From Antedon mediterranea (lineage: Eukaryota > Echinodermata > Crinoidea > Comatulida > Antedonidae), in assembly GCF_964355755.1 (NCBI RefSeq), contig NC_092678.1, positions 25,152,365 to 25,216,364 of the forward strand: DNA of 64,000 bases. The letters run 5' to 3'. How positions within the stretch are numbered: position 1 is the stretch's first letter; each line of letters starts with the position of its first letter. The notes under the pieces were generated by a model. The model had not been told where the DNA came from. It did not search any database and saw only the letters and a list, made by a program, of their open reading frames with translations. Shown one piece after another: positions 422 through 34,548 of this stretch. Both the position numbers and the translations under genes were made by a program.

Positions 422-492
422 GACCGGATAGCTCAGTCGGTAGAGCGTCGTGGAACACGATTATCGTGGGTTCAAACCCCATGCCGGTCTCG
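422..492 (+). pseudogene. tRNA-like sequence (degenerate, or SINE promoter head)
   Basis: GACCGG near the start pairs with CCGGTC at the end. A good D arm (GCTC AGTCGGTA GAGC, an A-box) and T arm (GGGTTCAAACCCC, a B-box) are present. The anticodon stem TCGTG/CACGA leaves only a 3-base loop, so no anticodon can be presented. This argues for a tRNA-derived SINE head or pseudogene that keeps its RNA polymerase III boxes. Confidence 0.5.
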
Positions 493-1121: not shown

Positions 1122-4100
1122 ATGGCACAAATAGGAAACAGCAATACACCAAATATGGGTAGTGATGCTAGAAGTATTGATATAACTGCTACGGAACAAG
1201 TAGAAACATTTACGGTAAGCATTGAATCTCCCTTTTTAGCTAGCTAGGCCTACTGTACTAGCTAGCCTATTTAGGCCTCCTAGTCAGCTAAATTAACTAC
1301 TAGGCCATAGGCCGAGAGGGACAGCCAGGCCACAGGAATATTCGGCCCAGTGGCAGGATATAGACAGCTTTACTACTATACTTACCAAACCTAGTAGGCC
1401 TACCCAATCTAAATATAGTTAAAACCGGATCCGTTAAACATGGGCTTCTATACTACTTATAGGATAGGCTTATTTTGTCAATAAATATTAATGCAGTTTT
1501 TACAAAAACAAGCTGTGTCTTATCCATAATATTAGGCCTATATATATACTGTATAGGATGGAAAATTTAAAGTGTCAATGTAATTACAATAATACAAATG
1601 TTAACATTTTGACAAAATGTTAATTATAATTTGATGTTGTTTATTTCACAGGTATATGTCATTCAAGTCACAATGGGAGAATGCTTTTGGACCGTCAAAC
1701 ACAGATACAGTGAATTTCACGAGCTGCACGAGAAATTAGTGTCGGATAAAAAAGTAGAAAAGTCTGCTCTGCCGCCAAAGAAACTCATCGGCAACACTTC
1801 TAAATCCTTCATTCAGAAGCGTAAACAAGAACTGGCAGTTTATCTGCAGAAGTTGATGGAGAGATACGATCCGTTGCCGTCACATCTTTCACGCTTCCTT
1901 GAGTTTGATATATATGTAAGTTGAACTTTAACCTTTAACCTTCTACACCAAGATTGTTGACAGCTTGAGACATTTGTTACTTGACGATCTCTATCCTAAC
2001 TTACTTATGCACTTGTCAATTGTATAACACTTATACGACAGGATAGGTGCGTCATTTGTCCGATGTGTGTCATACTTACCTCTCCCGGGTAGTATATAGT
2101 GGTTGAACTATGGGGTGAACAAACTTTAACCTTCTTCATCAAGATTTTTAGATCTGTGAGTGTGACAGCTAATACCTATGTTATGCCACTGAACAAAACA
2201 TTGTTTTATATTTTAAAGGATGTGACTGGTGTATCCCAGGCTCTTGCCAGGGAACTCTATGAGAAAGGTGATCTTATCCTATCAAGTGGTGAGGTGTGTG
2301 AGATGACACCAATGCAGTTGTTTGCTATTACTGAGAGACTCAAGTTACCTCTACCAACATGTGGTATGTGAACAGTATAATGTTGGATAGCCGAGTGGTT
2401 AGGACACTTGACTGTCATACAGATAGACCCGGGTTCAATTCCCGACAACTTCCAGTCCACTCAGCTGTAAATGAGTACCTGGTTGAAAATACTAGGGAGA
2501 AAAAAGGCGGCATGGAAAGGAACTGGCCACCGTACCACATAATGCTGAGGCTTAGTACAATGAGCTCCTAACAGCTTATTCCCCTACGTTCGGAATGAAC
2601 ACGGGACTCACCTTCTTGTAATGTGCTTTGTATAATTTTGTAACCTTATAATATGACATTCTTAACTTCAGATTCTAGGGTCAAACAACATTAGTTTTTA
2701 CGTACACAAGATCAGTAATTGACAATTCTATTATGTGATCAGCTGGTTATATTCTCAACCAAACAAATTATATGAAATTGTCATGAACTAATATGAATTT
2801 AAAGATTAATTGACATTTTAATTTCACTCATTTCTGTTTTTTTTTTTTGCTGACAGTTACTGGAGATGCCCGTAATGACCTAGGTCACATCATGGACTTC
2901 CTTGCGCAATTAAAATATCTCAGGGTAAATATTTATAATGCACTCGAAAAAAAAATCTGTATTCTGACTTTGTAACATCAGTACATGTTCCAGAAACTTT
3001 CACATAATCCTTAAAATGTTCTCTGTTACATAAAGTTTTCATAGCCAAAACTTATATTTCATAAACCTACAATTGACTCCTTTGCATAGTAAGTCTCTAA
3101 TTTATATAAACTGTTTTCTTGTGTAGATTGTTGGATCACATAACATGCTAGGCACCAGTAATAGAAAGGTCGATGAACTTCAGTTTGATATCAGTCCATT
3201 TAAAAACCTTATCCACTTACAGGTAATTGATTGCTTTATTGTTTATATGAACACTTTTTTTACTGCAGTAACTACATGTATTGCAGTAACTACATTTACT
3301 GCAGTAACTTCAATGTAATGTTTATGTGGTATAATATCTGTAGGTGTGAAATATGAGTACATTAGGGAATATCACTATCATATTTGGGAATATCACTACT
3401 ATATTTGGGAATATCACTACTATATTTGGGAATATCACTACCATATTTGGGAATATCACTATCATATATATGTATGTTTTGTCAAACTAATAGTGTAGAC
3501 AGAGCTTAAGGTTTGTTTTTTGGTTCTTGTTATAGATTGATATTTGTGATTTGAAGATGATTTTTGGGTTAGAGTCATTGAAGAAAACGTTACAAACACT
3601 ATGTGTACATAAGTCAGCTAAAAGCGTTAAGGTATTATTGTGGAGCTTGGTGGTTAACATGCTTGCCTTCCAAACCCAGTCCAATCCTGACCTAGTGACA
3701 GGGCTGTACTGTTACTCATGAATTTTTCAACTCCACTCTCTAAGCCTCAAATGAGACTTAGTTTATAAGCTGAAGATAAATTATTTTTAAATAATTTATC
3801 CTCTTGTAATTGGCCAGTTGCTTAGATGCGTATACAATTGATAACTTCCTTTATTTGTTATTGTTGTCCTTGGTTACAGGACATTCTACTGCCGTCGGTC
3901 AAGGATTGGTCAGCCCCCGAGAACACTGTGAACGACGGTTGCACAACAGCGTATGTGCCAGCCTGGAAGTGCATCACTACCGCAGATTTCAGTCGTAATG
4001 ATTTGCCTACTATAGATGAAACTGTCGTATGTTTACTTAATTTATTCTGACAACTTTTATTTAAAACTCTGTCTCTCTACAGATAAATTAATTAAAATTC

Positions 4101-7100
4101 TTTTTTCTTGTTAGAAACTTTTAGCAAAGGTTGAATACCTGTTCATTGGCAACAACAAAATTACTGAAATCACCAATTTGGAACATCTAAGTTGCCTCAC
4201 ATACCTGGATTTATCATTCAATGAGATTGAAAAGATGGACTGTCTGCACTCAAGGCTAGGCAATGTGAAAACCTTGAGGTTAACTGGTAACAAGTTAAAA
4301 TCACTGAAAGGGATGAATAAAATGTATTCACTCGTAGAACTGGACATCAGCAGGAATCAAATTGAAAATGTCAGTTCTACTTCTTTTATAGTTTTTCTGA
4401 TCGAGGACCCCCAAAAAAATCTGTCTACACTATCAATCTAGTTTGACAAAAAAATGTTATGTGCCCAAATATGGTAGTGATACTGTATGACATCATCATG
4501 TCCATATGGGCACATCACAATTTTTTGTTACATAAGGTTTGATAGTGTAGACAGAGCTTAATATTTTCTCAAGTGGGGTTTCTCGGGATGTTTCAAATAA
4601 TAAATATTGGGTGAAGTTATCATATCGATGCCAAACTAGGCAGACTGTGCAAACGTAGCCCTGAGAAATACAAATATGATAATATATTATGATATAAACA
4701 GGCTGGTTTCCCTGTACATTTGGTATATACAATTCAGCTATTAATCAATTCCAATGCGTAACCCTTCGTAGCCTACTACTTCGTAGTTTTTTATCGCTAT
4801 TGTACGAATTATTGTTTTTTATCATGATCCCACGCAATACCATGGAAAGATATTGTTTTTTTATCGCGATTCCATGCATCTTGTGGAGCTGCGATCAAAA
4901 CACGACACCACCCATAGCCACAAACCTGGAACATGGAGAATGTTGCCGGAATTTTTAGCTGGATTATATAATGTAATTTTGTGATTTTTATTTTTCTACT
5001 ATAACTACAGGTGGTGGAAGTTAGTCATATTTGCAATCTGCCTTGTATAGAAGTACTACAGATGTATGGAAACCCAATTACTAATGTTCAAGATTATAGA
5101 ACTAAAGTGTTTGAATTATTTGTGAGTCGAGTGTCGGAACTAAACCTGGACGGCCAGAAAGCGTCTGAGAAAGAGAAGGTAAGTTGGTACTGTGAAGCTC
5201 TGTCTACACTATCAAACTAATTTGACAAAAAAAAAGTGTGATGTGCCCAAATATGGTAGTGATTTCCTTAATATGGTAGTGATATGATATCATTATGTCC
5301 ATATATAGGCATATCATATTTTTTGTCACATAAAGTTTGATAGTGTAGACAGTGCTTGAGGGTGTCAAATATCAATCAGTTCTTTACAATTTTGTGTCTA
5401 TTGTAAGATATAGGTGCACAAGTTTTAGAATAATTCTAAAATAATTTTTAGAATTTAAATTAAAGCTTAAGACTTTGACTTTTCTACATGATTTCATTCA
5501 TTGCATTGTGTCAATGCGCCATGAGCATCTAAGGTATCCTTATTATTATTAAGTGTTCAGAAGTGGCATTATTATTTTGTGGTTTTTTTGTTACAGGATA
5601 CAGTAGCTGTACTAATGGCGATTCAGAAATCTAAAGATCACAAGGAAAGGTTAACGAAGCAAAGTTCACCTCATAAAAAGGTAACAATGTAATAAGCAAT
5701 GTTGATAAAAATACAGCATCATTTCTTTTATTGAATACCATTATATTCCATTATACTCATTGTAAGTGAGTGAGTATAATTGCCCGACTTGTAAACACAG
5801 GTTTAAGTCTTTGCCTGCCATTATACTCATTGTGAGTGAGTGAGTATGATTGGCTGACTTGTAAACACAGGTTTAAGTCCTTGCCTGCCATTATACTCAT
5901 TGTGAGTGAGTGAGTATGATTGGCCGGCTTGTAAACACAGGTTTAAGTCTTTGCCTGCCATTATACTCATTGTGAGTGAGTGAGTATGATTGGCTGACTT
6001 GTAAACACAGGTTTAAGTCCTTGCCTGCCATTATACTCATTGTGAGTGAGTGAGTATGATTGGCCGACTTGTAAACACAGGTTTAAGTCCTTGCCTGCCA
6101 TTATACTCATTGTGAGTGAGTGAGTATGATTGGCTGACTTGTAAACACAGGTTTAAGTCCTTGCCTGCCATTATACTCATTGTGAGTGAGTGAGTATGAT
6201 TGGCCGACTTGTAAACACAGGTTTAAGTCCTTGCCTGCCATTATACTCATTGTGAGTGAGTGAGTATGATTGGCCGGCTTGTAAACACAGGTTTAAGTCC
6301 TTGCCTGCCATTATACTCATTGTGAGTGAGTGAGTATGATTGGCCGACTTGTAAACACAGGTTTAAGTCCTTGCCTGCCATTATACTCATTGTGAGTGAG
6401 TGAGTATGATTGGCCGGCTTGTAAACACAGGTTTAAATCCTTGCCTGCCATTATACTTATTGTGAGTGAGTGAGTATGATTGGCTGACTTGTAAACACAG
6501 GTTTAAGTCCTTGCCTGCCATTATACTAATTGTGAGTGAGTGAGTATGATTGGCTGACTTGTAAACACAGGTTTAAGTCCTTGCCTGCCATTATACTCAT
6601 TGTGAGTGAGTGAGTGAGTGAGTATGATTGGCCGGCTTGTAAACACAGGTTTAAAGGGGGATTCTGGGTTTAAAATTGCTTTTAAATATCGTTTATTTAT
6701 TAAATAAAAAATATTATAACAATATAGACATGTCAGAATGAAGAAGTAATAACGAGAAATTAAAAAAATTAAATTTCATATACATTTTAGGGTAACTTCA
6801 TGGAAAGTCTGTTTTTCAGCAGCTTAGGGAAGCTCATTAATATTCATGAGATATTCACAAAATCACGTATTTATTCCAAACTCGCGACGTCATGTACGTT
6901 GTGTTTGTCAACTAATTTACATCTCTCTCCCATGTCAAACGACAACCACCCGATCATTGTGAAATACATTTTTTGTAGATTTTCTAAGCTAGGCCTAAAG
7001 TGTAATAATAACAGTAGTAGCATATATTTATTTGACATTTAATGAAATACAAAATTTAGTACAGATTACGGAGTCATAAATTATACTATTTGTATACCTC

Positions 7101-10100
7101 ATAGTACAGATCGTATTATCGGCTTCACGTACAATACTACTCTAGGCCTAGCCTAATGGGCGAGAGCCATTCTGACTAGGGATTCCATGCCACGATGGCT
7201 ACGTTAAAACAATGGGGCCCATGGGCCTAGAGCTAGCCTACTACTAGACGATTGGCCCATAAATAACAAAACCCATCCTATCAACCAAACTCCTAAACAA
7301 TCTAAACCTAAAACGTTCTACAAAATCGACTGTAAATATTGAAGCAAAACAAGGTCCGATCGCCGTCCACACGTATGGTGTCCCGATCGTCTAAGTAGGC
7401 CTAAAATAAAATAGGCTTAGTTTACTCTCCAAAAAAGCGGATACTCATGCATCAAGCAAGTAGACCAGGTAGTAGGAAGGAGACCTAGCCGATCCGGCCC
7501 AGTTAAAAATTGAGCTAGCTATAAGTGTAGTAGACCCTATGCGAATTGATACTACCAGGCCTTTTACTATAGGCTGCACTACACAAATATTCCAACTCTC
7601 TCATTCGAGCTATATTATCTATACCATTCCGGTAGGTCGAGTCGACCTTCAATCAAATACTGTACATCGTTCATGTTGTGATTATAGACGGGGTATACTC
7701 GACCCGACCGGTTTGGTATGGTTGTATCTGCTTATCACGTGACTATGCCAGGCATGGGCAGCAGAGAGAGCACGTGTATCGTCGTCTCGCTCGATCCTCA
7801 GCAGGAATGTACAGTATACGTTACGCTTCATTGATTTTGATTTTCCCTAAGTCGGTGCGAAAATCGGCAAACGTAAAGTGCAAACATATATAATTTTTCA
7901 CTGTTTTGATGAATTTTCATAAAAAATTGACTTTATAAATGGGAAGACCGACTAAAATTACATCAGATAAGTATAATTTTACAAAAGTAATTGATATGGT
8001 TAATGATAACGAGTCGTCGGAAGATGGACCATTTCACGAATTTCCTATTTTGTAACCACAGTGTGATTTTGCCGTAGCTGCACTTGTAATCTGGCCTGAT
8101 TTCACAGCCTTCGTTCTGCTTCACTGGGCGCTTATATAAATTGAAACTTTTACCGTTCAAGAGACAAACAAATATATTTTACATTTTTTACTATTCATTT
8201 TAAACCCGGAACCCCCCTTTAAGTCCTTGCCTGCAAGTTACTTTGATCAAAGCAATCTAACAACAGGACACTGAGCTTGCTTTGCCAAGATAGGAACTAG
8301 CAACATTCCTCTGATCTTATGTCTGGCTGCGACAAATACCAACAGTACTGTACTATGTACATATTCTCTGCGGCGCGGTGTCTGTTAAGGGTGTTGAAGT
8401 GATCGTGTCGCAGCAGCCACATTGATTTCCAGAGCTCAGCATCCTATTGTTAGATTGCCTTGCTTTCATACTGTAGGACCTCAGCATCCTATTGTTAGAT
8501 TGCCTTGCTTTCATACTGTAGGACCTCCATTGTGTGTTTGCATAGTTTACATTTTTTATTTAAATTATTAATTAATGTGTCGGTATCACAGAGAATATTA
8601 GAGGCTAGTTAAAATGTTTTTTGCTAATGACATTATTTTATTGTTTAAATATCTTTTTAATTCTTTTTTTGCCAAACTTGCATAGTATAAAATGACCTTC
8701 TACCACATGGATTGTGAATGCAACATGATGGTATAATATTAGGTTAACCTAAATATAAGTTTAAAAGTATTAATGACAGTATTGTTATCTTGTATTATAT
8801 TTGTATTATCATATAGGATGACACGGCAGAATCTTCCAGTCTAACAGTAATATATTTTCATTTTCATGCTATTTAAAAATTGTCTTCTGAAAATGAAATG
8901 ATTTGTAACAATGCTCAAATGTTCTTGGTTGAAACAATTCTTTTGTGATGACTTTTGTGTTCCAAGTACATACTTGTGCGCGATTAAGAATTTGGCTCAC
9001 TTTTCGAAAAGAGTAGGGAATGGTCTTTTCTGGTCGTGGACTTGTACGGAAGAAGTTAACCAGTAAGAAGAAATAAATGAACCAATCAGTCGTATTTGGC
9101 ATTGTTTAAAATGTGTTTCCTTACCAAATTTAATGTTTTATATTAATTCAAGACTTTCAGAAGACAATTATACTATTGTTTCAAGCTAAGTTCTTTCTTT
9201 TACAAACCGTCAATTTGATCAATACTGCTGGTTGTTGTAGACATAGAAATCAATATTATTAGTTTTTCCACTTCATCAGAACCAAACCATTGTATTTTGC
9301 ACGAATTGAATTTAGAATGCGGTGAAAGTGCTTTGTCTTTATATCTTTTCTTGCCACTTTTCTAACCAAAGACTAAATTACATTATATTGATAAAATAAC
9401 AAAAAAGCAATTAACCAGATTTGTTCAAATTGAATAGGTTTTCTTAACTAACCAATGAATATATTATGTTCAACTTTTTATTTTAAAATTTTATTTATTT
9501 TGCCTCACAACTGCTGCAAGTGCAATAAACATATTATTATATAATACAATAAATGAAAAATCAAGACTCAGGTTAATATTTCAACATATTTATTAACACT
9601 ACAGACTGTTTCATGAGAGAGATAAAAATACCTCCTCAATCTTCAGATGTTAGGCTCTGAAATGTTGAAATATTAACCCGAGTCTTGATTTTTCATTTAT
9701 ATTGTTCTACCTCTGTATCGAGCACTATTATTCATGATCTGGATCAAGTCTACCACACAGATTATATAATACAATATATATTATATAACAGTATATAGGC
9801 TGGCATATATAATAGGAGTTGTGCTTTTAAAACTATTTAGGCAGTATCACTATTAATATTATCACTGGCTTATTGTATGGGTACATCCGTTTATTTATGT
9901 TTATAAGTTTATGTTAGTGTAACATGGTTGTAGTTCTAGATGAGTTTCTACCACCACCACCACCACACTGTCTAAAGTGTATTTAAGAACTAACTTAATT
10001 TCCTCTTGAACCTTACCCAAGTTGGTACTATTTGAAAATCATATGCAACCCTCAACATTTTGTAACCACAACAAAATGTTTCAGCTACTGGTGATGGTTT

Positions 10101-13100
10101 TGTTTCATTTGAAATGGTGTCAATAACTAGTACTTCTACAATGAACAGTTGCTTTACCAATGTGGTCTTTGTGTTTAAGTCCTTTTCTATCATAAATACT
10201 TATTGTTTATCAAATTTGCATTAGTTTTCTCGTCATCTGCAGGTCAAAAAGTACTGAAATTCCCAATAAAGTAGTGGAGCTGTAGCTTATTGGTTATCAT
10301 GCTTGCCTGCGAATCCCAAGGTCCATGGTTCAATCCTAGCCAGGGTTGTCACATGATAGTGTAGACAGAGCCTAAGCATGATAAATTATAAAATAGTTTA
10401 TCCATCCTGTAATTGGTGAGTTTGTGCTCGCTGTTGGATGCGTATAAAAAAGGTTTACAATTTTTGTCTTTCCAGAAAGTGAACAAAGCAACAATAATTG
10501 ATCCAGACAACAGTACTAACGATTCACCAGGATCAAATCAGTCCGCATGTAAGTGTATCGTCCACCCATGAGTGTAAATAGTCACCACAATAAGCATGAG
10601 AACATTCCCCCACATTTATTGTCGCAAGTATATTCAAGATGGAAAACCAACAGGATGCGAAACTCATTCTCTCTACTGCAATGAGGCAATTAAATGAAAC
10701 TTGGAAACTTTGATCATTTTATGCTACCTTACACACACCAATCTTGCCATACCCTTACACACATCAATTTTGCCATACCCTTACACACATCAATCTTGTT
10801 ATACCCTTACACACACCAATCTTGCTATACCCTTACACACACCAATCTTGCCATACCCTTACACACATCAATCTTGCCATACCCTTACACACATCAATCT
10901 TGCTATACCCTTACACACACCAATCTTGCTATATCCTTACACACACCAATCTTGCTATATCCTTACACACACCAATCTTGCTATATCCTTACACACACCA
11001 ATCTTGCTATACCATTACACACACCAATCTTGCCATACCCTTACACACATCAATCTTGCCATACCATTACACACAACAATCTTGCTATACCATTACACAC
11101 ACCAATCTTGCTATATCCTTACACACACCAATCTTGCTATACCATTACACACACCAATCTTGCCATACCCTTACACACATCAATCTTGCTATACCATTAC
11201 ACACACCAATCTTGCTATACCATTACATTCACCAATCTTGCCATACCCTTACACACATCAATCTTGCTATACCATTACACACACCAATCTTGCTATACCA
11301 TTACACACACCAATCTTGCTATACCATTACACACACCAATCTTGCTATACCATTACACACACCAATCTTGCCATACCATTACACACACCAATCTTGCCAT
11401 ACCCTTACACACATCAATCTTGCCATACCCTTACACACACCAATCTTGCCATACCATTACACACACCAATCTTGCTATACCATTACACACACCAATCTTG
11501 CTATACCATTACACACACCAATCTTGCTATACCATTACACACACCAATCTTGCCATACCCTTACACACACCAATCTTGCCATACCCTTACACACACCAAT
11601 CTTGCTATACCATTACAAACACCAATCTTACTTGTATTTTAAACAATGTATTTTATCAGTATTATAAACATAGTATTTTATCAACAAACGAAAATAATTT
11701 TGTGCTATATTTTACTGTGTTTAACCTTGAAAAATTAAATGAAATAATGTACAAAACTATTGTACTTTATTCAGTAAATATCTGTAATTGTTTCACCAGC
11801 CACTGAGATTGACAATGCACAATATCGCTTTAAAGTGGAAGCCTTACGAAATGAAAGTGGAGAAAAGTGGTTGAAAGTTTTTAATGAACTCCAAGACTCC
11901 CCTCAAACATCACCAAAAGCAAGTCGCAAAGGCAGCAAATCTCCCAAACGAGGGCGCTCTCCAACACCATCTCAGAATAATTCACTATCAAATCCACGAA
12001 GGTTTGTATTCAAATTTTAAGGTCGTTTTTTAAAAACTTTCAATGTCCATCATTTTGTTTTTAGTGTCTTTGAAAAATATAAAAAATTACCTTATTTCTA
12101 GTTTAAAAAAGTGAACAATTATATGTTTTATGCATAGTTGCAGCACCTTTTTTTTGTCTTTTTTATGTTTTAGATTTATATTTTTATACAAATATGTTAA
12201 AATCAATCGCAATTCAGTTTTACTGTGAAGATTATTTGTAATAAATATACCATTATAAATGTTTGTGTTGTTGACAGGGCCAACGATACAGACTGGAAAC
12301 CCACTTTACAATGGCAGAGTCAGCAAAGAAGTGAGCCTTTTGTACTTAACCCAACAACACTGGCACTTGTTATCTTTGAAGAAATTCCTCGCTACTCTGT
12401 TAGAAACCTTGTCGAATTAAATGCACTTTTATTGCAAATTCGTATGGAACTTTTGGGACCAATCCTTTACACCTGCGGACCATTAGAGCGTAAATCGGTT
12501 AAAAGTGAGTATACAAAGCCGGGCAATAACGGACCGTCGATTGCCGAATACTTACGAAGCATGTCAGCTGAATTACAGGAAGATTTTGTGAAGTATCTCC
12601 GTAGTTTATTTGAGGGTCGAGTCGAGCTGAAATCTACAAAGGTAAAAATAAGTAAGGAAATGATTGGCAGCGTGTTAGCGTACTCTTTGAATGCCGTGGA
12701 GGAAGTAGAAGCGGACAAGCAGAGCCGATTACAAGAGACTGAAACGGAAAGTGAAAGTGGGTCATCTAGGAAGTCTAGTAGCAGCAGTGCAAGAGGACTA
12801 AATCTAGGCCCAAGCATCAAGAAACCAAACAGCCCTACAGCGGTTGTACAGCCAGTCATTGATGATGCTAGTTCAGGAAACTTTACCGGAAAGAACGAAA
12901 GTACCGATCAAGCTGCAGAAGGTGCAGTAGCATCAAACGAATGCATAGAGCAGGAGGAAGTTGCAACTGAACAGTTAGTGAACTCAGCGGATGATTTACC
13001 TGATATTGTATACGATGAAAAAACAATAAGATTGAGTACATGCTATGATGATAAACTTCATTTAGCTCACCTGACCCAATGTAACAAAGTGACCGACCTT

Positions 13101-17322: not shown

Positions 17323-18334
17323 TTATTAAATAATGCCGTTACATTTTATTCACAAATGAAACCTGTTGTACTAGAAATAATGTGTTAAGGCAGAGAGTGT
17401 GTCGTTTAAATTAGTATACGTTTTGATAGTTACTGGATTCCAGTACTCTCTTTCTCCCATCTAAAACATTTTGATGTTTTCAATAAACAACACGATTACG
17501 GCGTTCCGTATACAGTACCTCGGATTCCATCCCGAGACGGCGACGACGATGGCCGAACCGAGCCGAGAGGGAGAGCGGAAGTAAACGCATATTAATTAGT
17601 CCGTAAAAAGAGAGGTAAATTGTTGCTAAATTAATAATAAATGTTGTTTAATTAAGCGTTTTGAACATCTTTTATAATATAAGTATATAATACTGCTATA
17701 AAGGTATATTGTGGCCTACAGTATTTGACATTTCACATCGTTTCTAGCTAGGCCAAGGCAAGGTACGGCCTAGCCTCCTCAGGGCAGCCTCTTAGGGAAC
17801 TTGTCCTAAACGACGAGTCGGATAATTTTGGTCGCGTTTCGAATCGGTCGCGTATATGGCATGAAAAATGTGCCTTATATATATTTTTATTTGCGTATTT
17901 ATCCAGGGTGCTGATTGGAGTGTGTGTTTCTAAATATATTTATTGGTGCATGTCTTCTCTTTATATGTATTGTTTTTATCTTACTTTTTAATTTAATATA
18001 AATCAATACTAGGCCTATGTAAAGTTTTTGATATTAATAATTATATTATATACATATATTTTAATTGTTTTAACTCTGAGCAAATGAATTTCTCCTTTGG
18101 TGGAAATCAATAAAATTATTTCTTAGTCCTATAATGAAAAGTCCATTAAATTAATAACTACAGTATTATTAATTCATATAAATTGTTATAGGCCTAGATA
18201 AAAACAAGGAAAAGAAATTAACGTAACAATACTGGAGTACTGTACTAATAAAAGCACTGCTGGCCGTTATATTGCCGAACTGTATTAGCTAATTTTTAAA
18301 AATTGATTATTGTTGTTTACAGATCCAATCAAAG
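17323..18334 (+). promoter_or_regulatory. Upstream region and probable 5' UTR exon of the first TRIM gene
   Basis: A relatively GC-rich patch (17505-17614) ends AAAGAGAG|GTAAAT, a good donor. It could be the non-coding first exon that splices to the acceptor at 18321-18322, 12 bases before the ATG at 18335. This 5' region does not resemble those of the other TRIM copies. The rest is AT-rich with several AGGCCTA motifs. Confidence 0.4.
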
Positions 18335-20503
18335 ATGGCTACCAGTGATTTGACTAAATTTCTAGAAGATATCGATGAGAAGGTTCTAGAGTGTCAAATA
18401 TGCTTAAATAGACTCAACGAACCCAGAACCTTAACATGTCTTCATAGCTTCTGTTTGGGTTGTCTTGAAAACTGGTTAGAGAAAAATAAGAAAGAAATTA
18501 CCTGCCCAACATGCTCCAAATCTTATCAGATTCCGGAGGGTGGTTTAAAGAAATTGCCACCCAACACCTTTCTGAATAATCTATTAGAAAGAATTGAACA
18601 ATTCACGAATACAGATCAGATAAAATGTCTCTGTGGAAAGGAAAATCAAACTAAACATTACTGTCAAGATTGCAGACAATATTTGTGCCACGATTGTAGT
18701 GATACCCATAAGAAATATAGACTTTTTAAAAATCATACATTGCATGCCGTGGAAGAAGTTCAATCTATGAGTATCAGTGAAATCAATGCCATGCACCCAC
18801 CTCTGTGTTCCATCCACCATGAACCCTTAACAGTGTTTTGCAAAATATGCGATGTTGCCATTTGTATTCACTGTTTATACATGGACCACAAGGAATGGGA
18901 AGGAAAAGGAAAACATGTGACCATCAGCATAACAGATGCGTTCATAACGTTTAAACAAACATCAGAAGAATTGGAGAAAGTTGCTAAACAATGTACAGAT
19001 AAATTAAATGATGACCTTAAAGTAATGACTGATCATGTTAAGAAACTAGAAGAAAAGAGGGAAAAGAGTTTGAGGGGAATTGAAAGTCATGTAGAGGAAT
19101 TGGTAAGAAGAATAAAAGACAGTGGAGACAAATTAAAGAGTGAAGTGGAGGCAATGTACAAAATAAAGAGGAAGGCAACTGATGCTGACATAGAGGATGT
19201 GACAACGACTGTATCGTATATAAACACTAACATCAATTTGCTGCATCACCTAAAGAAGAGTAACGAAGCAACGGCAATGTTATCTGGTAATAATGTTGTT
19301 AGAATACTGGATGAAAAGGTCAAAGCAGCTTCTAAAACACAATATGATAGAAATGCAGATATTAACTTTGTTAAAAACAATCAACAAATTGTTTCATTGA
19401 ACGAGGATATTGGAATGGTTACAGAATCAAGGGAAGCAGACTGCTTTGAAATAAGAGGAGCTGAGAGCATGACGACAGGACAAACGCTTGATGTTAAAAT
19501 AATTAAAACTGATGATTGTGAAATAAATGCAAATGACATAAAAGCTACATTGACACAACCAACAGGAGAAACTATCATCACTGAAGTGGAAGAAGACATC
19601 AATGGTGACTATACTGTGATAGGTAGATGTACAAGTGCAGGGATTTGCAAGGTTGATGTTAGAGTTGATGGTGAACACATTAAGAAGTCACCAATGAGTA
19701 TCAATGTACAGAAAGAAGGATTATTAAACACTATAAAAATAGATAATGTTAAAGACGTTAAGGATGTAGTTAAATATGGAGACGACTGCTTGCTTGTTTT
19801 ATGTCAAGATAATGTCATTCACAAATACAAGCAAACAGGTGAAAACATTGGTACGGGTACACTATCAGGAGGTGTGAAGGTATGCAGAATGTACACAATG
19901 AACAATGGTAATATAGCATTCAGTGATCGGGGTAATGAATGCATCACAGTGTGCACTACGGATGGTAAGGTGGTTAAATCATTTGGTAAGGAAGTGTTGA
20001 GAAATCCATGGGGTATCCATGTGGATGAAGCATCACGTGTCATGTATGTAGCTAATGATAATAATGTAGTCATGTTTAACATTGAGAGTCGCAAGCTCAT
20101 TAAGAAAATAGCAGAATGTGATATTACTGGTTCTGAATTTGTAAATATCATTGATGTGACCCTTACAAGACAAGGACATATTCTTGTACTTTACCTTAAC
20201 GAAAGCTGCTTAAAACAATTTGATAATGAGGGAAAGTTGTTGAAGGAAATTGTCAATAAAGGTGATGAAGATGGTAAGGTGAAATGCCCCAATGGAGTAG
20301 TAGTTGATGATGATGACAATATCATAATATCAAGTTGGCACAAACTACAGCAGTTTAGTAATAGTGGAAAGTTCATTAAAAGGATTGATAAAAAAGAAGA
20401 TGGAATAAAAAATCCAAAAGGATTATCCATCATATCACACCATCCACGTAGACTGGCAGTGGCAAATAAAGGTGATAAAACAGTAAAAATATTTAATTAT
20501 TAA
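18335..20503 (+). CDS. TRIM2/3/71-like RING-B-box-coiled-coil-filamin-NHL protein, copy 1
   Basis: One exon of 722 codons. A RING finger (C20, C23, C35, H37, C40, C43, C57, C60) is complete, so it is probably an E3 ubiquitin ligase. B-box 1 is at about 98-137 and B-box 2 at about 158-195, then a coiled coil (about 205-290). A filamin-type immunoglobulin repeat (about 385-460, with GDYTVIGRCTSAGICKVDV) and an NHL beta-propeller (about 475-722) follow. This is the class VII TRIM layout of TRIM2, TRIM3, TRIM32 and TRIM71, in which the propeller binds substrates or RNA. A splice acceptor (TTGTTTACAG) lies 12 bases before the ATG, so the 5' UTR is spliced and the CDS intronless. It is the first of a tandem family. 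Substrate unknown; likely cytoplasmic. Confidence 0.93.
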   Translation: MATSDLTKFLEDIDEKVLECQICLNRLNEPRTLTCLHSFCLGCLENWLEKNKKEITCPTCSKSYQIPEGGLKKLPPNTFLNNLLERIEQFTNTDQIKCLCGKENQTKHYCQDCRQYLCHDCSDTHKKYRLFKNHTLHAVEEVQSMSISEINAMHPPLCSIHHEPLTVFCKICDVAICIHCLYMDHKEWEGKGKHVTISITDAFITFKQTSEELEKVAKQCTDKLNDDLKVMTDHVKKLEEKREKSLRGIESHVEELVRRIKDSGDKLKSEVEAMYKIKRKATDADIEDVTTTVSYINTNINLLHHLKKSNEATAMLSGNNVVRILDEKVKAASKTQYDRNADINFVKNNQQIVSLNEDIGMVTESREADCFEIRGAESMTTGQTLDVKIIKTDDCEINANDIKATLTQPTGETIITEVEEDINGDYTVIGRCTSAGICKVDVRVDGEHIKKSPMSINVQKEGLLNTIKIDNVKDVKDVVKYGDDCLLVLCQDNVIHKYKQTGENIGTGTLSGGVKVCRMYTMNNGNIAFSDRGNECITVCTTDGKVVKSFGKEVLRNPWGIHVDEASRVMYVANDNNVVMFNIESRKLIKKIAECDITGSEFVNIIDVTLTRQGHILVLYLNESCLKQFDNEGKLLKEIVNKGDEDGKVKCPNGVVVDDDDNIIISSWHKLQQFSNSGKFIKRIDKKEDGIKNPKGLSIISHHPRRLAVANKGDKTVKIFNY

Positions 20504-20914
20504 ATAATAATTAAATAACATTAGCATTAAATAAATAAATGTTAATACAGTAATTGTAATGTTACTCTCCGTATTGAACATAATTAAATAAATCAACTTG
20601 TAAATATAATACAAACGTGTACAGATTACAAATAAAATGTTATAGTGATCTTATGCATAAATTAGGCTTATTGTTATATAACAATAATCATTTTAATTTC
20701 ATTTACTTATAATTTTATATTTTTGTGGTAAAATATTATTGTTTATGAAGAAAATATTGTAATTGAAATCAGAGGCGTCTTAAAGCTAATGTTTTACCTG
20801 GCGCCTCTGTGTAATATGTTGAATTAAAAACACAATATTGTAATTGAAATCAGAGGCTTCTTAAAGCTAATGTTTTACCTGGCGCCTCTGTGTAATATGT
20901 TGAATTAAAAACAC
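20504..20914 (+). repeat. 3' region of TRIM copy 1 with duplicated GAGGCG hairpin
   Basis: The region just after the stop codon (TAAATAATA, then TAAATAACATTAGCA) is shared with copies 2 and 5. A hairpin CAGAGGCG (20770-20777) with CGCCTCTG (20802-20809) is tandemly repeated at 20851-20890 and occurs once after copy 5 (42935-42975). Several AATAAA-like polyadenylation signals follow the stop codon. No ORF. Confidence 0.6.
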
Positions 20915-21319
20915 AATATTACTTTTTCTTGAAAGAATTTCATTTAGCTTCGATTTTGTATAGATGACAAATTTCGTTTTTGTAAAAGCACAAGTTAACG
21001 GAGTACTTACTCGAACGTTTCGATCTCTATCAGAGATCCTTCTCAACTGACTGGGGAGTGTTAATGCAGCTTGGTCATTCTTGACGTCATCTGTTGATGA
21101 CGTCGTACGCCTCCGGTTGTAGGTTGGAGGTAATAAAAAAGAAGAGGAGGCGTACGACGTCATCAACAGATGACGTCAAGAATGACCAAGCTGCATTAAC
21201 ACTCCGCAGTCAGTTGAGAAGGATCTCTGATAGAGATCGAAACGTTCGAGTAATAAGTACTCCGTTAACTTGTGCTTTTACAAAAACGAAATTTGTCATC
21301 TATACAAAATCGAAGCTAA

Positions 21320-24160
21320 ATGAAATTCTTTCAAGATTTAAGAGAAAAATATGGTCAAGAAACCATCAACATCGTTCGCAAACAGGAAAATATCGCGAAG
21401 AAAATTTCACGGCAGAGAAATCACCGGGTATTCTCCCTTCATTGTAAGCGGTTGGACATTACCCCTCCGAGCCTGAAATTATATCGACCGATCAAATCGT
21501 CTAAAGCAGAGGAAATAATAAAACATGCAGAAAGACAGCTTTTACGCGAGAGAATTGGGGGTTTTTCGTAATAAGCTGTGTTTATCAGCTGATTTTATTT
21601 TATTTTATATACTTTTACTATATCTTGTTTTGTATTCATTGTGTAAAGTAATGATCTACTGTATGTATCGATGTAAATTGGGGGGGGGGGGTAGGATAGG
21701 GGTTGATAGTTGCTTTTGCCTTTTTTACTTTTCTGTTAATTGTTATATTTTATATTGTGAAGGATGCACCTTTGTGCTAAGTGTGCCACCGATCTAAAGG
21801 TGTAATTCCAAATAAATAAATCTATAAGAATCACCACCAACAAAATCACACAGTTAGAAGGCAAAAAGAAAGATTTAAATGAGGAAATCGTATCACTAAT
21901 TCCCAACGGAGGGGACATCACCAATGTATGTAATCACGTAAACAAAGTATGTGAAGCGGAATTCTTAAAATGCCGATCACGAAACAAAACAAACTGTTGT
22001 GGTGGAAAAACAAAGCAGAAAACGCAGCTAGAGATTTACATCAAGAACAGGATTTATCCGGTAAGATCTTAAGAGAAAAATGGGTGGTAAATCTGTCTAG
22101 TAAGTTGGTTAGTGAGGACGAAATATCAGCATTACAAAGGGGATTGAACTATGCGGCGAGCCCACGATCCATGCCCATTGACGATCTCATAGTAGCGGCT
22201 GAAAAAGCGGCTGATCTCGTCCCCCTGGAAGAACAAGACACCGTTCGCAGTAAAATTGTAGCTATTGTAAAATCTACCACTCTACCACCTTCAAATTTAA
22301 CCCCCAAAGAACGAAAGGCCATAAACAACTTGAAGAAAGATAAATCTATTCTTATTCTCCCAGCGGATAAAGGTAGATCTACTGTCATCCTAAATACTAA
22401 TGATTACAAAGATAAAGTGGGAACCATGGTGAGCGACACTAATGTTTACGAACTGCTAAAACGTAATCCAACACAAAACTATAAACGAAAAGTGGTCAAC
22501 ATCATAGGTAGGTTGTTCAAAGAAAAGAAAATCAACTACAGAGAGAAAGAATGGCTGTTTCCCACGGCTGAAATTGTACCTAGGTTGTATTGTCTTCCGA
22601 AGATACATAAACCAAATTGGCCATTAAGACCTATAGTAGATAACATCAACACCGTCTTTTACACCGTTGCACAATTCCTCACCAAAATCCTGGGTCCACT
22701 TGTCGGAAACACAGAAAATCATGTAACTTACTCAGGAGAGTTGGCGAGTGAACTAAAAGAAATAATAGTCAAACCAAGTGAAACATTTGTCTCGTTTGAC
22801 GTAGTATCTCTGTTTACAAAAACACCAGTAGAAGAGGCCCTCAAAGTTGTCGAAAATCGCCTAACAACAGATCCGACACTTCTGGATAGAACTAAACTAC
22901 ATGTGACAGACATAATGGAGCTCCTCGGTTTAATTGTGAACAAAACCTATTTCTCGTTCAATGGTAACAATTATAGGCAAATACAAGGCATTGCTATGGG
23001 AAGCCCAATAAGTCCTATATTGGCGAACTTGTATCTAGAGTGGCTCGAACATCAAGCCATAAACACGGCACCCACTAACATCAAGCCTGTGTATTGGAAA
23101 CGATACGTTGATGATGTATTAGCTATCATCCCCATAGGTACAGTACATACATTTAACACACATCTTAATAACATCGATATAACTGACAATATCAAGTTCA
23201 CCACAGAATCGATGACAAACAACACAATACCTTTCCTGGACATGCTCATCACACTCAATGACAATGGAACAGTTACCACCTCAGTTTATCGGAAGCCCAC
23301 TCACACAGACCAATATTTACATTTCAACTCACATCATCCACTCGAACACACTGGGGCTTATAAACACGCTTGTGGACAGAGCTGAGAAGGTAGTGGGAGA
23401 TATGGATTTGAGGAAAGTTGAGATGGATAACATCAAGAAATCGTTACACAACTGCCAGTATCCAGAGTGGTCCTTCCAGAGAGTTATGGAAAACCGAAAA
23501 AGAAAAAAGAACAAAGGACACGAACCACAGAAGGAAAAGATCAAGATGCGAGGTAGCATAGGAATCCCCTACGTAAAAGGAATGGCAGAAAGAATACGAC
23601 GCACTCTCTCCTATCACAATGTCGGAACCTATTTCCTACCCCAAAATAAAATCAAGAATAGCCTCGTCCACCCAAAAGATAAAATCGAGAAGATGGATAA
23701 ATGTGGAGTAATCTACGAAGTCACCTGCCGCAACTGTCCACAAGTTTACATTGGGGAAACAGGGAGGGCATTACAAACACGAATTAATGATCACAAAAAA
23801 GATGTTACAACAAACACGGGGGGAGTAATGACTAGGGCCTCCAGAACATCCACATCTTCGATCATACACAAATCTGCCATTACAGAACATGTCATAAAAC
23901 ACAATCATGTACCAAACTGGGAGGCTACCATCTTAACCAAAGAGCCTAAACGCAAAGACAGACAGATTAGAGAATCATTACATATAAGGAGAAATAAGGA
24001 GAAGACCATGAACCGGGACACTGGAGCCCACGAACTCTTGCATTTGTACAATGATTTGATAGACACATCACCTGGCCGAGCCCCGCACAACCTCCAACCT
24101 ACAACCGGAGGCGTACGACGTCATCAACAGATGACGTCAAGAATGACCAAGCTGCATTAA
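21320..24160 (+). pseudogene. Penelope-like polyprotein: reverse transcriptase plus GIY-YIG endonuclease, frameshifted
   Basis: An N-terminal piece (21320-21571) is cut by about 240 bases of unrelated sequence. The frame picks up around 21815 and a long open frame runs 21970-23385. It carries reverse transcriptase signatures SFDVVSLFT (motif A), GIAMGSPISPILANLY (motif B) and the catalytic YVDD (motif C, WKRYVDDVLAI). The frame shifts near 23330-23385 and continues 23258-24160. There a GIY-YIG endonuclease domain lies (GVIYEVTC with VYIGETGRALQTRINDH), preceded by a KPTH motif. The RT plus GIY-YIG pairing is diagnostic for Penelope-like elements. At least two interruptions make it a pseudogene unless the assembly is wrong. 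Confidence 0.88.
21572..21815 (+). mobile_element. Small insertion inside the Penelope-like element
   Basis: About 240 bases that interrupt the Penelope reading frame, with a run of ten Gs and the 3' end AAAGGTGTAATTCCAAATAA followed by ATAAAT. A similar tail (AAAGGTGCAGTTTCAATAAA) lies near 50805. It looks like the 3' end of a truncated retroposon. Identity unknown. Confidence 0.4.
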
Positions 24161-24271
24161 CACTCCGCAGTCAGTTGAGAAGGATCTCTGATAGAGATCG
24201 AAACGTTCGAGTAAGTACTCCGTTAACTTGTGCTTTTACAAAAACGAAATTTGTCATCTATACAATATTAC

Positions 24272-25957
24272 TTATTATGCAAACTGTATATTGCCCAAGA
24301 CACGTAAGCTGACATTATGGTAGGATTTAAGTGATGACTTGTAAGTCAGGGAAACTGGTAGTGAACATATTTCGTATATTTCAGCCAAATTTAATTCTGT
24401 AAGTACATACTTATTAACACCCACAGATTCAGGACGCTATCGAATCAAACCAAAGAAGTATACTATAAAATACGTTTTATTTTTCCAAGTATAATCAGAT
24501 TATGTCATGTTATATTATTATTAAATTAATTACTGTAGGTAAATTTCTTATAGAAACACATTTTATTACACATTAATGAAACATTTCAACTGTATTTAGG
24601 TTTAATATAGTAAATGTGTGTATGTTTTTTTTTTGGCTTTAATTATTAAAACTAAATAAATAAATAACAATTTGTTACTTTATACTGTATTTAAAGTGAG
24701 ATAGAAATATTTCCTATCTTTTCCCTTATAATAGGCCTACTCCAGAAGAAGAATAGTGTTAAGGACACTAATACTTAATAGGTAATTTTACAGTGCTAGA
24801 TGTATGTATAGAAAGTTTTAAAAAAAGATTGGGGTAATTAAATCTTTTATAACTATTTCCTAGGGTTTTTCTCAAATAAATACAATACATAAGTCACATC
24901 TGCTACTTCAAATTAGGCTAAATTCCATAGTACGCTATTTGTGGAGTAAAGAATAACCTTTTCTGTTTGTATTAATTGAGGAACTTATTCCCTCCATAAA
25001 CGTTTCCGAGTAAAGGACAATGTTGCGTTCTTAACAATATAACTGTACATAAAAGAAGCAATCATGCTAGTCCAATAAAAATGCATCAAAGCTTCATTAT
25101 TCATATCAGAACCATTGTTTTAACATGCATCATTTGCGCCTGTCTACAAACAACTATCAAAAACTATCTATTGAGAAAAGGTAGGTTATTTAATAAGGTA
25201 GTACTAGTAGTAGGTTAATTTTGACACCATGTCGTACTTCCTGGTTTGGATAAGTGCACTGTTTTAGTATTTTAATAAACACAATCGTCATTCAATAATT
25301 AAATATAAAATAAATCGTCTTCATTTTCGATGTAAATTCTATGTCAAAATATTGAATAATACCACAAGTAGCCTATGTATCATACTTTTGGAAGTTAACT
25401 GCATATCGTCACTTTTGAATACACAGCGAATAGAAATAAGAACTAATCCAGTTTAATAATATTCAGGGCGTGACTGGTGACGTCATGACTAATGTCACAT
25501 GACCGATCGTTTTATAAAAATCGCTTTATAAACATCGATTTATAAACTAATTTCAGAGTATACCGATTGCCCGGGACTCTATAACATTTGTAGATCAACT
25601 ATGATTATTTACTACCAACTTAAACAAAAGGCTGTGATACAATTTGGTAGAAGTAACATGCTATAGCCCTCTATGAAAAGTGTAGAGTGTAATAATATAA
25701 ATACACTAACGTCACAAGAATCATGACTAAACACTTATTTCATATCGGAACCATTTGTTAGATCTCAGCAATTGGCCTTGTCTACATTATAGTGATAGAC
25801 TTGAACCATAATGTATCTTTACAAAATATCAAGTGGGCACGAAAAAATGGAAGACAATAGACTCAGTGAATTAGTAAATGTATTTCACCAGCAAACACAA
25901 TTAAAATAAAAGGAAAATAACCCTTAAAGTAATTATCAGTTCACAGATTAACACAGG
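24272..25957 (+). other. Spacer between TRIM copies 1 and 2, with promoter of copy 2
   Basis: No gene is seen. 24272-24660 matches the region after TRIM copy 5 (43005-43590), and 24740-25957 matches the region before copy 6 (46866-48077). The intergenic unit was therefore duplicated as a block. A short minus-strand reading frame at about 24890-25090 is also present at 47035-47223 but has a stop here, so it is probably a relic. Confidence 0.6.
25461..25580 (+). promoter_or_regulatory. Candidate class A promoter of TRIM copy 2 (CRE-like TGACGTCA)
   Basis: The palindromic CRE/ATF site TGACGTCA (25478-25485) lies in GGCGTGACTGGTGACGTCAT and is followed by TTTATAAA elements and ACCGATTGCCCGGGACTCT. 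The same block precedes copies 3 and 6. The 5' UTR intron acceptor (GTTCACAG at 25939-25946) is about 460 bp downstream. It is inferred from conservation among paralogues only. Confidence 0.45.
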
Positions 25958-30362: not shown

Positions 30363-30725
30363 CTTAATGTTATACGTGTCCAGGTACCTAGCTCTCCGGA
30401 ATGTTATTTTGTAATCATATCAATAGTACACAAAAGAACCAGTCATGCTCTGGTAATAATATAAATACACTAACGTTACAAGAATCACGAATAAACACTT
30501 AATTCATATCGGAACCATTTGTTAGATCTCAGCAATTGGGCTTGTGTCTACATAGACTTGCGCCATAGGTGGTCTAATGTATCTTTACAAAATATCAAGT
30601 GAGCACGCAAAAATTAAAGACAATAAACTCAGTGAATTAGTAAATGTATTTCACCATGCAAACACAATTAAAATAAAAGGAAAATAACCAATATAGGCAA
30701 TTATCAGTTCACAGATTAACTCAAG

Positions 30726-32885: not shown

Positions 32886-34548
32886 TACATTAGTATGCTC
32901 CATCCAGAAATATTTATAGTTTTCAAGTTCAATATTTTTGTTAATTCTGTTAATTTCAGTTTTTCAAGTTATAGTTTCTCTTTGTTAACTGGTGTATTGA
33001 AAATATTGAAAGAAAATTAGTGTTAAAAAGGTAAATTAGACATCAATTACCGTATTTATTCTAATAAATGCAACATCCCACCCCCCCCCCCCCCCCTGGA
33101 ATAAACGCACGCCCGTCAAATAAACTCCCCCTTGAATATAACCATAATATTATTTCCTTAAATAGATGCCACACCACTTGCTTATGTACACAATATTGTT
33201 ACCATAATTACACCCATAAAATAAACACTTCCCTCTAAAAAAAACCGTGCTGAACAATAAACACCCCAAGAAATTTATTCCAATAAACACAGTATGTAAA
33301 TGGTTTCGATTATTTCATCTCTTAAATTCCAAGTAATTGTAATTTATATATGCAATGAGTCCTATATTCTCATTAATTTTAATTAATTTTTAATATCTTG
33401 TATTTTTACATAGTGAAATACAGTATATAATATAACAAAAGTATATTATTTAAAAATTGTTTGACTTCTTTTTATCCAAACAATTACCATTTATATTAAT
33501 AAAGTCTGAAATAATATAGTGTAATATTTTACATTTTATTATATAATTCACACAATATAATATGTATAATACATCAGTTCTAAAAATAGATTTTCTCAAT
33601 GGGACGGAAGTTGTACCAGTGACCTATTGTACTGCAAGAAAACTGAGTTTTGATTGGCTGATAGTTACTGTCATATCTGAATAAATTATGACGAATTCTG
33701 ATTCGCAATTAAATTACGATAATCAGGCAGGGCGTTTACGGTTTTCTCATTCATTAAGTTTTGCATCTCATTTTGTCCTGTACGGAAAAAGGTAAATATC
33801 TGCTAAAATTGAACTTATATTTTGATTAATTATGATATTTTAGCATCATCTAGTATAAGTGTATTACTATGTATAATCAAATTTAAGCCTACGATGTTTA
33901 ACTTGACATTACATCGTTTTATATCTAGCTAGCTAGGCTAGAGGCTCAGACCACTGACTGACGTGCACTGAGAGATGCACTAGGCTACTACTACTACCCA
34001 CTACTAGCTACTACTCTACTAGGCCTATATGCTAGGCACTCTTTACATTAACATGATGATGAGAGTGGAGATCATTTATTAGAGCAGAATTGTTGGACAC
34101 TGTGCTAATTAGGCTTAGAATAGGCCTAGCCTACTACAATATAATATAATAAGTATCACCATAATAATATAATATAGGCCTAATAATAGTAGGCCTACTC
34201 TAGTAGTGTAGAAAGAAATGCACGTACAGGTAATAAATGTTATTTAAGGTTAGTCTGGTAAATTCTGAAATATTTCGCCCACGCCCCAAAAAATGGGAAG
34301 GCATGCTAAATATGTATAAGTAGTAATATTATTTGTTGTTTTGTCATGAATTTGTTTTCATTTACGGTAAGTTATATACATATTTTTGTAAATTCTTTTC
34401 TACTGAGGGAATTTGATGATTTTTATGTTGGGTGCATTAGAACATGTGAACAAATGTGGAATGGTGAAATAAAGTTTATGTACCAAAATTATTTTTTTAA
34501 ATTCTTTTTACACATTTAGAATAATTTTTGTTCACAGATTAACTCAAG
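32886..34548 (+). repeat. Tandem-array spacer unit before TRIM copy 4, with class B promoter
   Basis: This spacer is repeated almost completely at 38806-40492 and in part at 36717-38469. It holds a C-rich segment of decayed AATAAACNCC repeats (33060-33290). An inverted CCAAT box (TTTGATTGGCTGATAG at about 33650) follows. A conserved stretch then ends GTCCTGTACGGAAAAAG|GTAAAT (donor at 33792), a probable non-coding first exon. An acceptor (GTTCACAG) precedes copy 4. AGGCCTA-rich DNA lies at 33930-34200. No other gene. Confidence 0.65.
33640..33791 (+). promoter_or_regulatory. Candidate class B promoter and first exon of TRIM copy 4
   Basis: GAGTTTTGATTGGCTGATAG (an inverted CCAAT box) and the downstream GTACGGAAAAAG|GTAAAT splice donor are conserved before copy 4, the fragment (donor at 37830) and copy 5 (donor at 39714). 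They are absent before copies 2, 3 and 6. The intron to the acceptor near 34538 would be about 750 bp. Confidence 0.45.

What the first reader, a model, noticed from the sequence alone, without database searches (positions are those of the whole stretch)
9551..9698. Hammerhead-ribozyme-like fold inside a MITE
On the minus strand all parts of a type I hammerhead are present in order: stem I (UAACAU/GUGUUA), core CUGAAGA, a hairpin stem II, GAA, a minimal stem III (ACA/UGU) and a cleavage-site A. It is enclosed by 36-bp inverted repeats. Hammerheads are known in Penelope-like elements and retrozymes. A short inverted-repeat element with one in the centre would be a distinctive mobile RNA unit, possibly mobilised by Penelope-type machinery.
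Basis: partly seen in the sequence, partly recalled or inferred. Interest (0 to 1): 0.75.

Follow-up and report, generated by a model that had tools for sequence, protein, structure and literature searches.

The report
Penelope retrotransposon stub with hammerhead ribozyme
The stretch is a short, broken, back-to-back copy of the end of a Penelope-type jumping gene that carries a hammerhead (self-cutting RNA) motif; such motifs are already known in these elements, so it is a well-supported new example of a known kind rather than a new mobile RNA unit.

Summary
The hammerhead is real as sequence and structure, and the Penelope link is right, but 'MITE' is wrong. Minus strand 9652-9594 forms a minimal type I hammerhead (cut 9600/9599); 150 shuffled windows gave none. 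Across 48 chosen copies from three subfamilies, stems I and II show compensatory changes. Against activity: a conserved U-U replaces G10.1-C11.1 (45 of 48), no Rfam hit, and a rival fold is 5.7 kcal/mol better, so cleavage is unproven. Related copies place the motif at the pLTR/ORF junction of a GIY-YIG Penelope-like element (PLE), one with an intact 760-aa frame. The window insert (9552-9760, 16-bp target duplication) is a 5'-truncated head-to-head pair of pLTR fragments; the 36-bp inverted repeats are their overlap. One outer end is the short 3' end, the other carries the PLE 'tail'. The same one-short/one-tail pattern holds in 18 of 18 head-to-head inserts read in one piece (13 subfamily C, 4 subfamily A, one full-length PLE elsewhere in the window), suggesting that the two target strands prime at different RNA start sites. 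Inverted pLTRs and the tail are published PLE hallmarks. Verdict: new member of a known kind.

The parts
9536..9551 (.). left target-site duplication ATTATATAATACAATA
   Evidence: identical 16 nt at 9761-9776 (also repeat D1). The exact border is ambiguous by a few bases because the tail end itself reads ..CAGATTA.
9552..9661 (-). inverted arm: PLE pLTR fragment in minus-strand sense, from just 5' of the hammerhead to the short 3' end (..TTTTTCATT)
   Evidence: matches L003-type copies q1-114; short end as in subfamily C reference position 744-749
9594..9652 (-). hammerhead motif, predicted cut between 9600 and 9599
   Evidence: model R1, trained on this and 18 other copies, scores it 95.8 bits
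9552..9587 (.). left copy of the 36-nt inverted repeat = overlap of the two arms
9662..9697 (.). right copy of the 36-nt inverted repeat
9662..9760 (+). direct arm: the same pLTR in plus-strand sense, 5'-truncated, ending with the tail (..CTACCACACAG)
   Evidence: 93.8% over q83-178 of the L003 element; tail end corresponds to reference position 810 of subfamily C
9761..9776 (.). right target-site duplication ATTATATAATACAATA

Best explanation
A dead, 5'-truncated insertion of a GIY-YIG Penelope-like element made of two head-to-head pLTR fragments. Inferred course: the PLE protein cut both strands of an AT-rich site; each target strand primed reverse transcription inside a pLTR-containing PLE RNA, one at the upstream start site (short end) and one at the downstream start site (tail); the two cDNAs were joined head to head, leaving a 16-bp duplication. 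The hammerhead inside is the one that sits at the pLTR/ORF junction of the parent element, where it probably trims or separates tandem or read-through RNAs; in the window it is a passenger. Shown: insert boundaries and duplication, homology to pLTRs next to RT/GIY-YIG frames, the one-short/one-tail pattern, covariation of ribozyme stems. Inferred: priming order, joining, ribozyme role. Not shown: cleavage or present-day activity.
For: Insert 9552-9760 between identical 16-mers. Window-type copies L008, L009, L022, L023 (and hammerhead-less L027) have GIY-YIG coding homologous to the L134 ORF on the sense side upstream of the hammerhead region, best E 1.5e-48 (5 of 66 A/B loci examined). Subfamily C continues 5' into RT and GIY-YIG coding; L134 has one 760-aa frame between TGA inside stem II and TAA, with no stop inside, so the segment 3' of the hammerhead is the ORF-start region, as in the Anolis PLE (PMC11167929). 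One short and one tail end in 13 of 13 subfamily C head-to-head loci, in L001, L002, L024, L029 and in the window's own full-length PLE. Published hallmark: inverted pLTR with optional tail on one of them (PMC3846280 passages). Stem covariation 0 of 500 shuffles.
Against: Pfam recognises neither domain of the L134 ORF even at E<=10 and no PDB chain matches; the profile match to a canonical PLE RT is modest (E 0.0014, probability 17%) and the GIY-YIG match is 19 columns at E 0.036, probability 1.4%, so domain names rest largely on motifs read by eye. Simple-repeat flanks blur many duplications. L087 and L122 are tail-to-tail and not explained by the model. PMC3846280 favours self-priming on an antisense template.
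Confidence: 0.92

Rival explanations
1. A MITE or other DNA-transposon derivative with terminal inverted repeats and a captured hammerhead.
For: 36-48-nt inverted repeats and a target duplication.
Against: 4 of 29 window-type loci have a second inverted arm, with different junctions; the two outer ends differ by the tail; longer copies carry RT/GIY-YIG coding.
Confidence: 0.02
2. A non-autonomous retrozyme: hammerhead-delimited monomers spread through circular RNA.
For: Small AT-rich dispersed element with a type I hammerhead, as in PMC7229834 (part 1 of 6 read). Two subfamily A events (L029; L030 with its duplicate L031) start exactly at the predicted cut.
Against: I saw no tandem hammerhead-to-hammerhead monomers in the loci read. 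0 of 44 subfamily C 5' ends lie at the cut; 24 of 44 lie just 5' of the hammerhead. Related copies are coding.
Confidence: 0.05
3. The same PLE fragment, but the hammerhead is a relic kept only by recent descent, catalytically dead in the family.
For: U-U in place of the 10.1-11.1 pair in 45 of 48; stable rival fold; the complete core is present in 24 of 48 chosen copies, core plus all stems in 12 of 48; no Rfam hit.
Against: Core kept across three subfamilies while stem I pair 3/75 and stem II pair 18/52 change in a compensated way; the young subfamily C keeps it beside an intact ORF. The Anolis PLE hammerhead cleaves only with protein present (PMC11167929).
Confidence: 0.35
4. A box C/D snoRNA-derived repeat.
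For: Weak C/D-box hits at E 1.3-4.1; UGAUGA in the old subfamily.
Against: Where box D would be, the aligned copies read CUGU or similar and L028 alone CUGA; scores far below gathering; pLTR context.
Confidence: 0.01

Closest known systems
GIY-YIG Penelope families of Adineta vaga (PMC3846280, passages seen)
   Same: Inverted plus direct pLTRs, short target duplications, optional tail on one inverted pLTR, RT plus GIY-YIG ORF.
PAc, Poseidon of Anolis carolinensis (PMC11167929, parts 1-2 of 4 read)
   Same: Hammerhead at the pLTR/ORF junction; two RT start sites a short way into the ORF that define the tail; both strands cut and extended in vitro.
   Different: In vitro no difference in start site between strands was seen there; here the two ends of head-to-head inserts always differ. 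Sequence compared by description only.
Minimal type I hammerheads of PLEs (Cervera and de la Pena 2014; Lunse et al. 2017: seen only as citations; reviews PMC6155905 and PMC7761336, passages)
   Same: Type I hammerhead with a tiny helix III in PLE pLTRs.
   Different: Here a 3-bp stem III with a 3-nt loop and a conserved U-U at 10.1/11.1; whether the cited variants share these was not checked.
Metazoan retrozymes (PMC7229834, part 1 of 6 read)
   Same: Small dispersed AT-rich elements with type I hammerheads.
   Different: No tandem monomers seen here, insert ends mostly not at the cut, coding relatives present.

Membership tests
Type I hammerhead ribozyme | conserved core CUGANGA, GAA, A15.1-U16.1, H17 | tested here: met
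   Met in the window copy. Across 48 chosen copies: CUGANGA exact 33, GAA 41, A15.1-U16.1 44, H17 45, entire core 24.
Type I hammerhead ribozyme | three helices in type I order with compensatory changes | tested here: met
   Covariation score 0.162, 0 of 500 shuffles, highest at slide 0; stem I 3/75 AU 17, GC 13, GU 11; stem II 18/52 GC 24, AU 17. The number of pairs changed on both sides (6) is not above shuffles (137 of 500). On the first 19-copy set the same count was 1.
Type I hammerhead ribozyme | G10.1-C11.1 pair at base of stem II (recalled from general knowledge) | tested here: not met
   U-U in 45 of 48 copies, the window included.
Type I hammerhead ribozyme | recognised by the Rfam hammerhead models | tested here: not met
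   No match (RF00163 on the genome) is uninformative since its controls also gave nothing.
Type I hammerhead ribozyme | self-cleavage at H17 | not testable with these tools
   Needs an in vitro assay.
Penelope-like element (GIY-YIG type) | telomerase-like RT plus GIY-YIG endonuclease in one ORF beside the pLTR | tested here: inconclusive
   L134 760-aa frame with YRDD-type RT and GIY-YIG-like motifs by eye; Pfam and PDB none; profile match to canonical PLE RT E 0.0014, GIY-YIG E 0.036. The canonical PLE used for comparison hits RVT_1 and GIY-YIG in Pfam.
Penelope-like element (GIY-YIG type) | head-to-head inverted pLTRs with optional tail at one end | tested here: met
   Window insert and 17 others.
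Penelope-like element (GIY-YIG type) | target-site duplication | tested here: met
   16 nt in the window; L093 14 nt and L095 16 nt exact, others blurred by TA repeats.
MITE | family of copies sharing both terminal inverted repeats | tested here: not met
   4 of 29 loci have a second inverted arm, and its two ends differ.
Retrozyme | tandem monomers delimited by hammerhead cut sites | tested here: not met
   None seen in the loci read; 5' ends cluster upstream of the hammerhead.
Retrozyme | circular RNA intermediate | not testable with these tools
   No RNA data.

The most novel reading that the evidence does not exclude
PLE head-to-head inserts are the product of one coupled two-strand reaction in which the two target strands always prime at different ones of the two internal RNA start sites (one short, one tail). 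The hammerhead-sized solo pLTR fragments would then be the default product: reverse transcription from a 5'-proximal start site to an RNA 5' end just upstream of the hammerhead. The rule held in 18 of 18 pairs read in one piece, against about 4e-6 if the ends were chosen independently at the most favourable odds of one half.
Probability: 0.5. Interest if true: 0.55.

Novelty: new member of a known kind. Interest (0 to 1): 0.35.

Why it matters
It turns a suggestive 'ribozyme MITE' into an explained PLE footprint and shows that inverted repeats around a hammerhead need not mean a new mobile unit. The young subfamily C (best-scored copies mostly 97-100% identical; one intact frame) is a natural data set for the open question of how PLEs integrate: the one-short/one-tail rule can be tested in any genome and complements the in vitro report that a PLE extends both strands from two internal start sites. 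The conserved U-U hammerhead is also a ready test of whether PLE ribozymes depend on their protein.

Tried and rejected
MITE, retrozyme and box C/D snoRNA readings were considered and rejected (see rivals). The L003/L005 pair, 5.1 kb apart, was first taken for a pLTR pair; it lies in a segmental duplication around a receptor-like ORF (the label is by eye). Starts exactly at the cleavage site looked like an in vivo cut signature, but in subfamily A only 2 of 19 ends (L029; L030, whose near-duplicate L031 is not counted) start there and one more (L037) lies one base off, and 0 of 44 in C do, so I do not claim it. The end positions were typed in and are approximate; its printed bins for A use a linear shift, under which the A cut site falls in the '699-745' bin. 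The RF00163 genome search rang nowhere, controls included. RNAalifold on A1 gave another weak fold, and on A1 alone covariation was thin; the stronger result needed the wider set A3. A3 was chosen by hand for readable motifs, which favours intact copies. Left out of A3: from the fetched A/B copies L024, L026, L027, L029-L032, L037-L041, L046-L050, L056-L058, L060, L061, L063, L065, L066, L068, L070, L072-L075, L077; from C, motif rows such as L092, L097, L100, L101, L119, L127, second arms, and identical copies. 18 single-arm C copies had a 5' end inside the fetched stretch (13 tail, 5 short); C loci whose 5' end lay outside or was complex were not tallied. Copy sampling is partial: one search scored 40 of 135 candidates with a tail-bearing query, one search printed only the first part of its 133 places, and I fetched a choice of them. 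Two further loci with arms in opposite orientation, L087 and L122, are tail-to-tail and were not counted among the head-to-head 13. Wider pairs L098/L099, L100/L101, L091/L088 and L121/L122 also show one short and one tail end but were not read in one piece and are not in the 18.

Full report
What is there. On the minus strand 9652-9594 all parts of a minimal type I hammerhead stand in order, with the cut predicted between 9600 and 9599. A strict descriptor finds only this motif in the window and none in 150 dinucleotide-shuffled windows. Rfam's hammerhead models do not fire, and the nearest-neighbour optimum of the 59 nt is another fold, 5.7 kcal/mol better than the hammerhead fold.

Copies. 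A DNA search of the 354-Mb genome gave 46 matches; the nine best after the window itself cover roughly window 9549-9660 at 89-96%. In the hammerhead sense the copies share the hammerhead and about 50 nt 3' of it but differ in their flanks. Of 29 loci compared, 4 have a second, inverted arm. A pattern search for the 3' half of the motif found 133 places against 0 for the reversed control and, exposed two more subfamilies: an old one (B), many of whose copies have the canonical CUGAUGA core, and a younger one (C) with a shorter stem II.

Ribozyme support. In 48 hand-chosen copies from the three subfamilies, stem I pair 3/75 is AU 17, GC 13, GU 11 (7 unpaired) and stem II pair 18/52 is GC 24, AU 17, GU 1, UA 1 (4 unpaired, 1 gap). 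The covariation score (0.162) and the number of cells changed on both sides (37) were reached by 0 of 500 shuffles and are highest without sliding; the number of pairs changed on both sides was not unusual (137 of 500 shuffles). These are few, subfamily-level events. The base of stem II is U-U in 45 of 48. CUGANGA is exact in 33, GAA in 41, H17 not G in 45, the entire core present in 24, core plus all stems in 12 of 48.

Parent element. Subfamily C copies extend 5' into coding sequence with GLYRDDGLAAF and, near the C terminus, TYVGLTENTFKCRYNAH. L134 holds one frame of 760 aa that opens after a TGA inside stem II of a hammerhead, runs through the segment that follows it, and continues through the RT-like and GIY-YIG-like parts to a TAA. 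So the segment 3' of the hammerhead is the ORF-start region of the next unit, as in the Anolis PLE (PMC11167929, parts 1-2 of 4 read). The window's own subfamily A is tied in directly: five of 66 A/B loci (L008, L009, L022, L023, L027) have coding homologous to the C-terminal part of the L134 ORF, best E 1.5e-48, and in L008, L009, L022 and L023 it lies upstream of the hammerhead in the same sense. Pfam does not recognise the ORF; profile comparison with a canonical PLE of the same genome gives E 0.0014 (probability 17%) for the RT and a short weak match for GIY-YIG, whereas the canonical ORFs hit RVT_1 and GIY-YIG in Pfam. The lineage within PLEs is not assigned.

Insert anatomy. The window insert is 9552-9760 between identical 16-mers at 9536-9551 and 9761-9776. 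Its left part is the pLTR fragment in antisense, ending at the short 3' end; its right part is the same pLTR in sense, ending about 64 nt further at the tail. The inverted repeats are where the two fragments overlap. In subfamily C, 13 of 13 head-to-head loci have one arm stopping at 744-749 of the 810-nt reference and the other at 810 (L078-L081, L086, L089, L092-L097, L129). Subfamily A adds L001, L002, L024 and L029, and the window's own full-length PLE at about 20925-24261 adds one more, whose ends differ by about 35 nt. Single-arm copies use either end (13 tail, 5 short of 18). L040 holds only the interval between the two ends, beside a 13-nt direct repeat. Tail-to-tail arrangements also exist (L087, L122) and are not explained.

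Mechanism. Most likely the PLE enzyme cuts both strands, each strand primes at an internal RNA site, and the cDNAs are joined head to head. PMC11167929 reports in vitro that both strands are cut and extended and that RT starts at two adjacent internal sites that define the tail, without a difference between strands. PMC3846280 (passages) describes inverted pLTRs with the tail on one of them and favours self-priming on an antisense template. The strict one-of-each pairing is what the present data add. The 5' ends cluster just upstream of the hammerhead (24 of 44 in C, 7 of 19 in A), which would fit a template RNA 5' end there; 2 of 19 ends in A and none of 44 in C start at the predicted cut.

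Known or new. Minimal type I hammerheads in PLE pLTRs, tandem and inverted pLTRs and the tail are in print (PMC6155905, PMC7761336 and PMC3846280: passages; PMC7229834: part 1 of 6; PMC11167929: parts 1-2 of 4). Three literature searches on PLEs and the texts read showed me no statement of an invariant short/tail pairing; that is not proof of absence, and the two key primary papers on PLE hammerheads were not held. The finding is a new member of a known kind. The usual G10.1-C11.1 pair is recalled, not taken from a call.

Noticed in passing
window 20913-24273: A full-length canonical Penelope/Poseidon-like PLE: target duplication ACAATATTACTT, inverted pLTR about 20925-21131, direct pLTRs 21146-21310 and 24107-24261, ORFs 21955-23385 (RT) and 23216-24160 (GIY-YIG) in different frames; a near-identical ORF pair in L090 hits RVT_1 and GIY-YIG.
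   Followed up: partly
window about 21205-21260 and 24175-24220: The pLTRs of that PLE hold GATCTCTGATAGAGATCGAAACGTTCG, which by eye resembles stem II and the GAAAC of a stem-III-less PLE hammerhead; a descriptor did not report it.
   Followed up: no
L080 3' end and L094 (minus strand): CACCTGATGATGGGCTATGCCCGAAACATGT, a hammerhead-like core with a GGGC/GCCC stem II, lies beside subfamily C inserts; possibly another PLE hammerhead family.
   Followed up: no
L087 (C3:6919300-6920300): A 946-bp, 99.6% tail-to-tail palindrome of subfamily C; real insert pair or assembly artefact not resolved.
   Followed up: no
window 18293-20503, 25952-28123, 30720-32885, 34543-36716, 40487-42661, 48072-50235: Tandem array of similar long ORFs that look like RING/B-box/filamin/NHL (TRIM-type) proteins; labels by eye.
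   Followed up: no
window 10727-11629: 26-bp minisatellite, 34.7 copies, with strong negative GC skew.
   Followed up: no
window 5748-6615 and 61861-62487: 70-bp and 57-bp tandem arrays, 12.4 and 11 copies at 96%.
   Followed up: no
window 422-490: tRNA gene, 44.6 bits.
   Followed up: no
window 3761-3809 (+) and 24681-24720 (-): Weak matches to the hammerhead model R1, E 0.056 and 0.22; probably chance or decayed copies.
   Followed up: no
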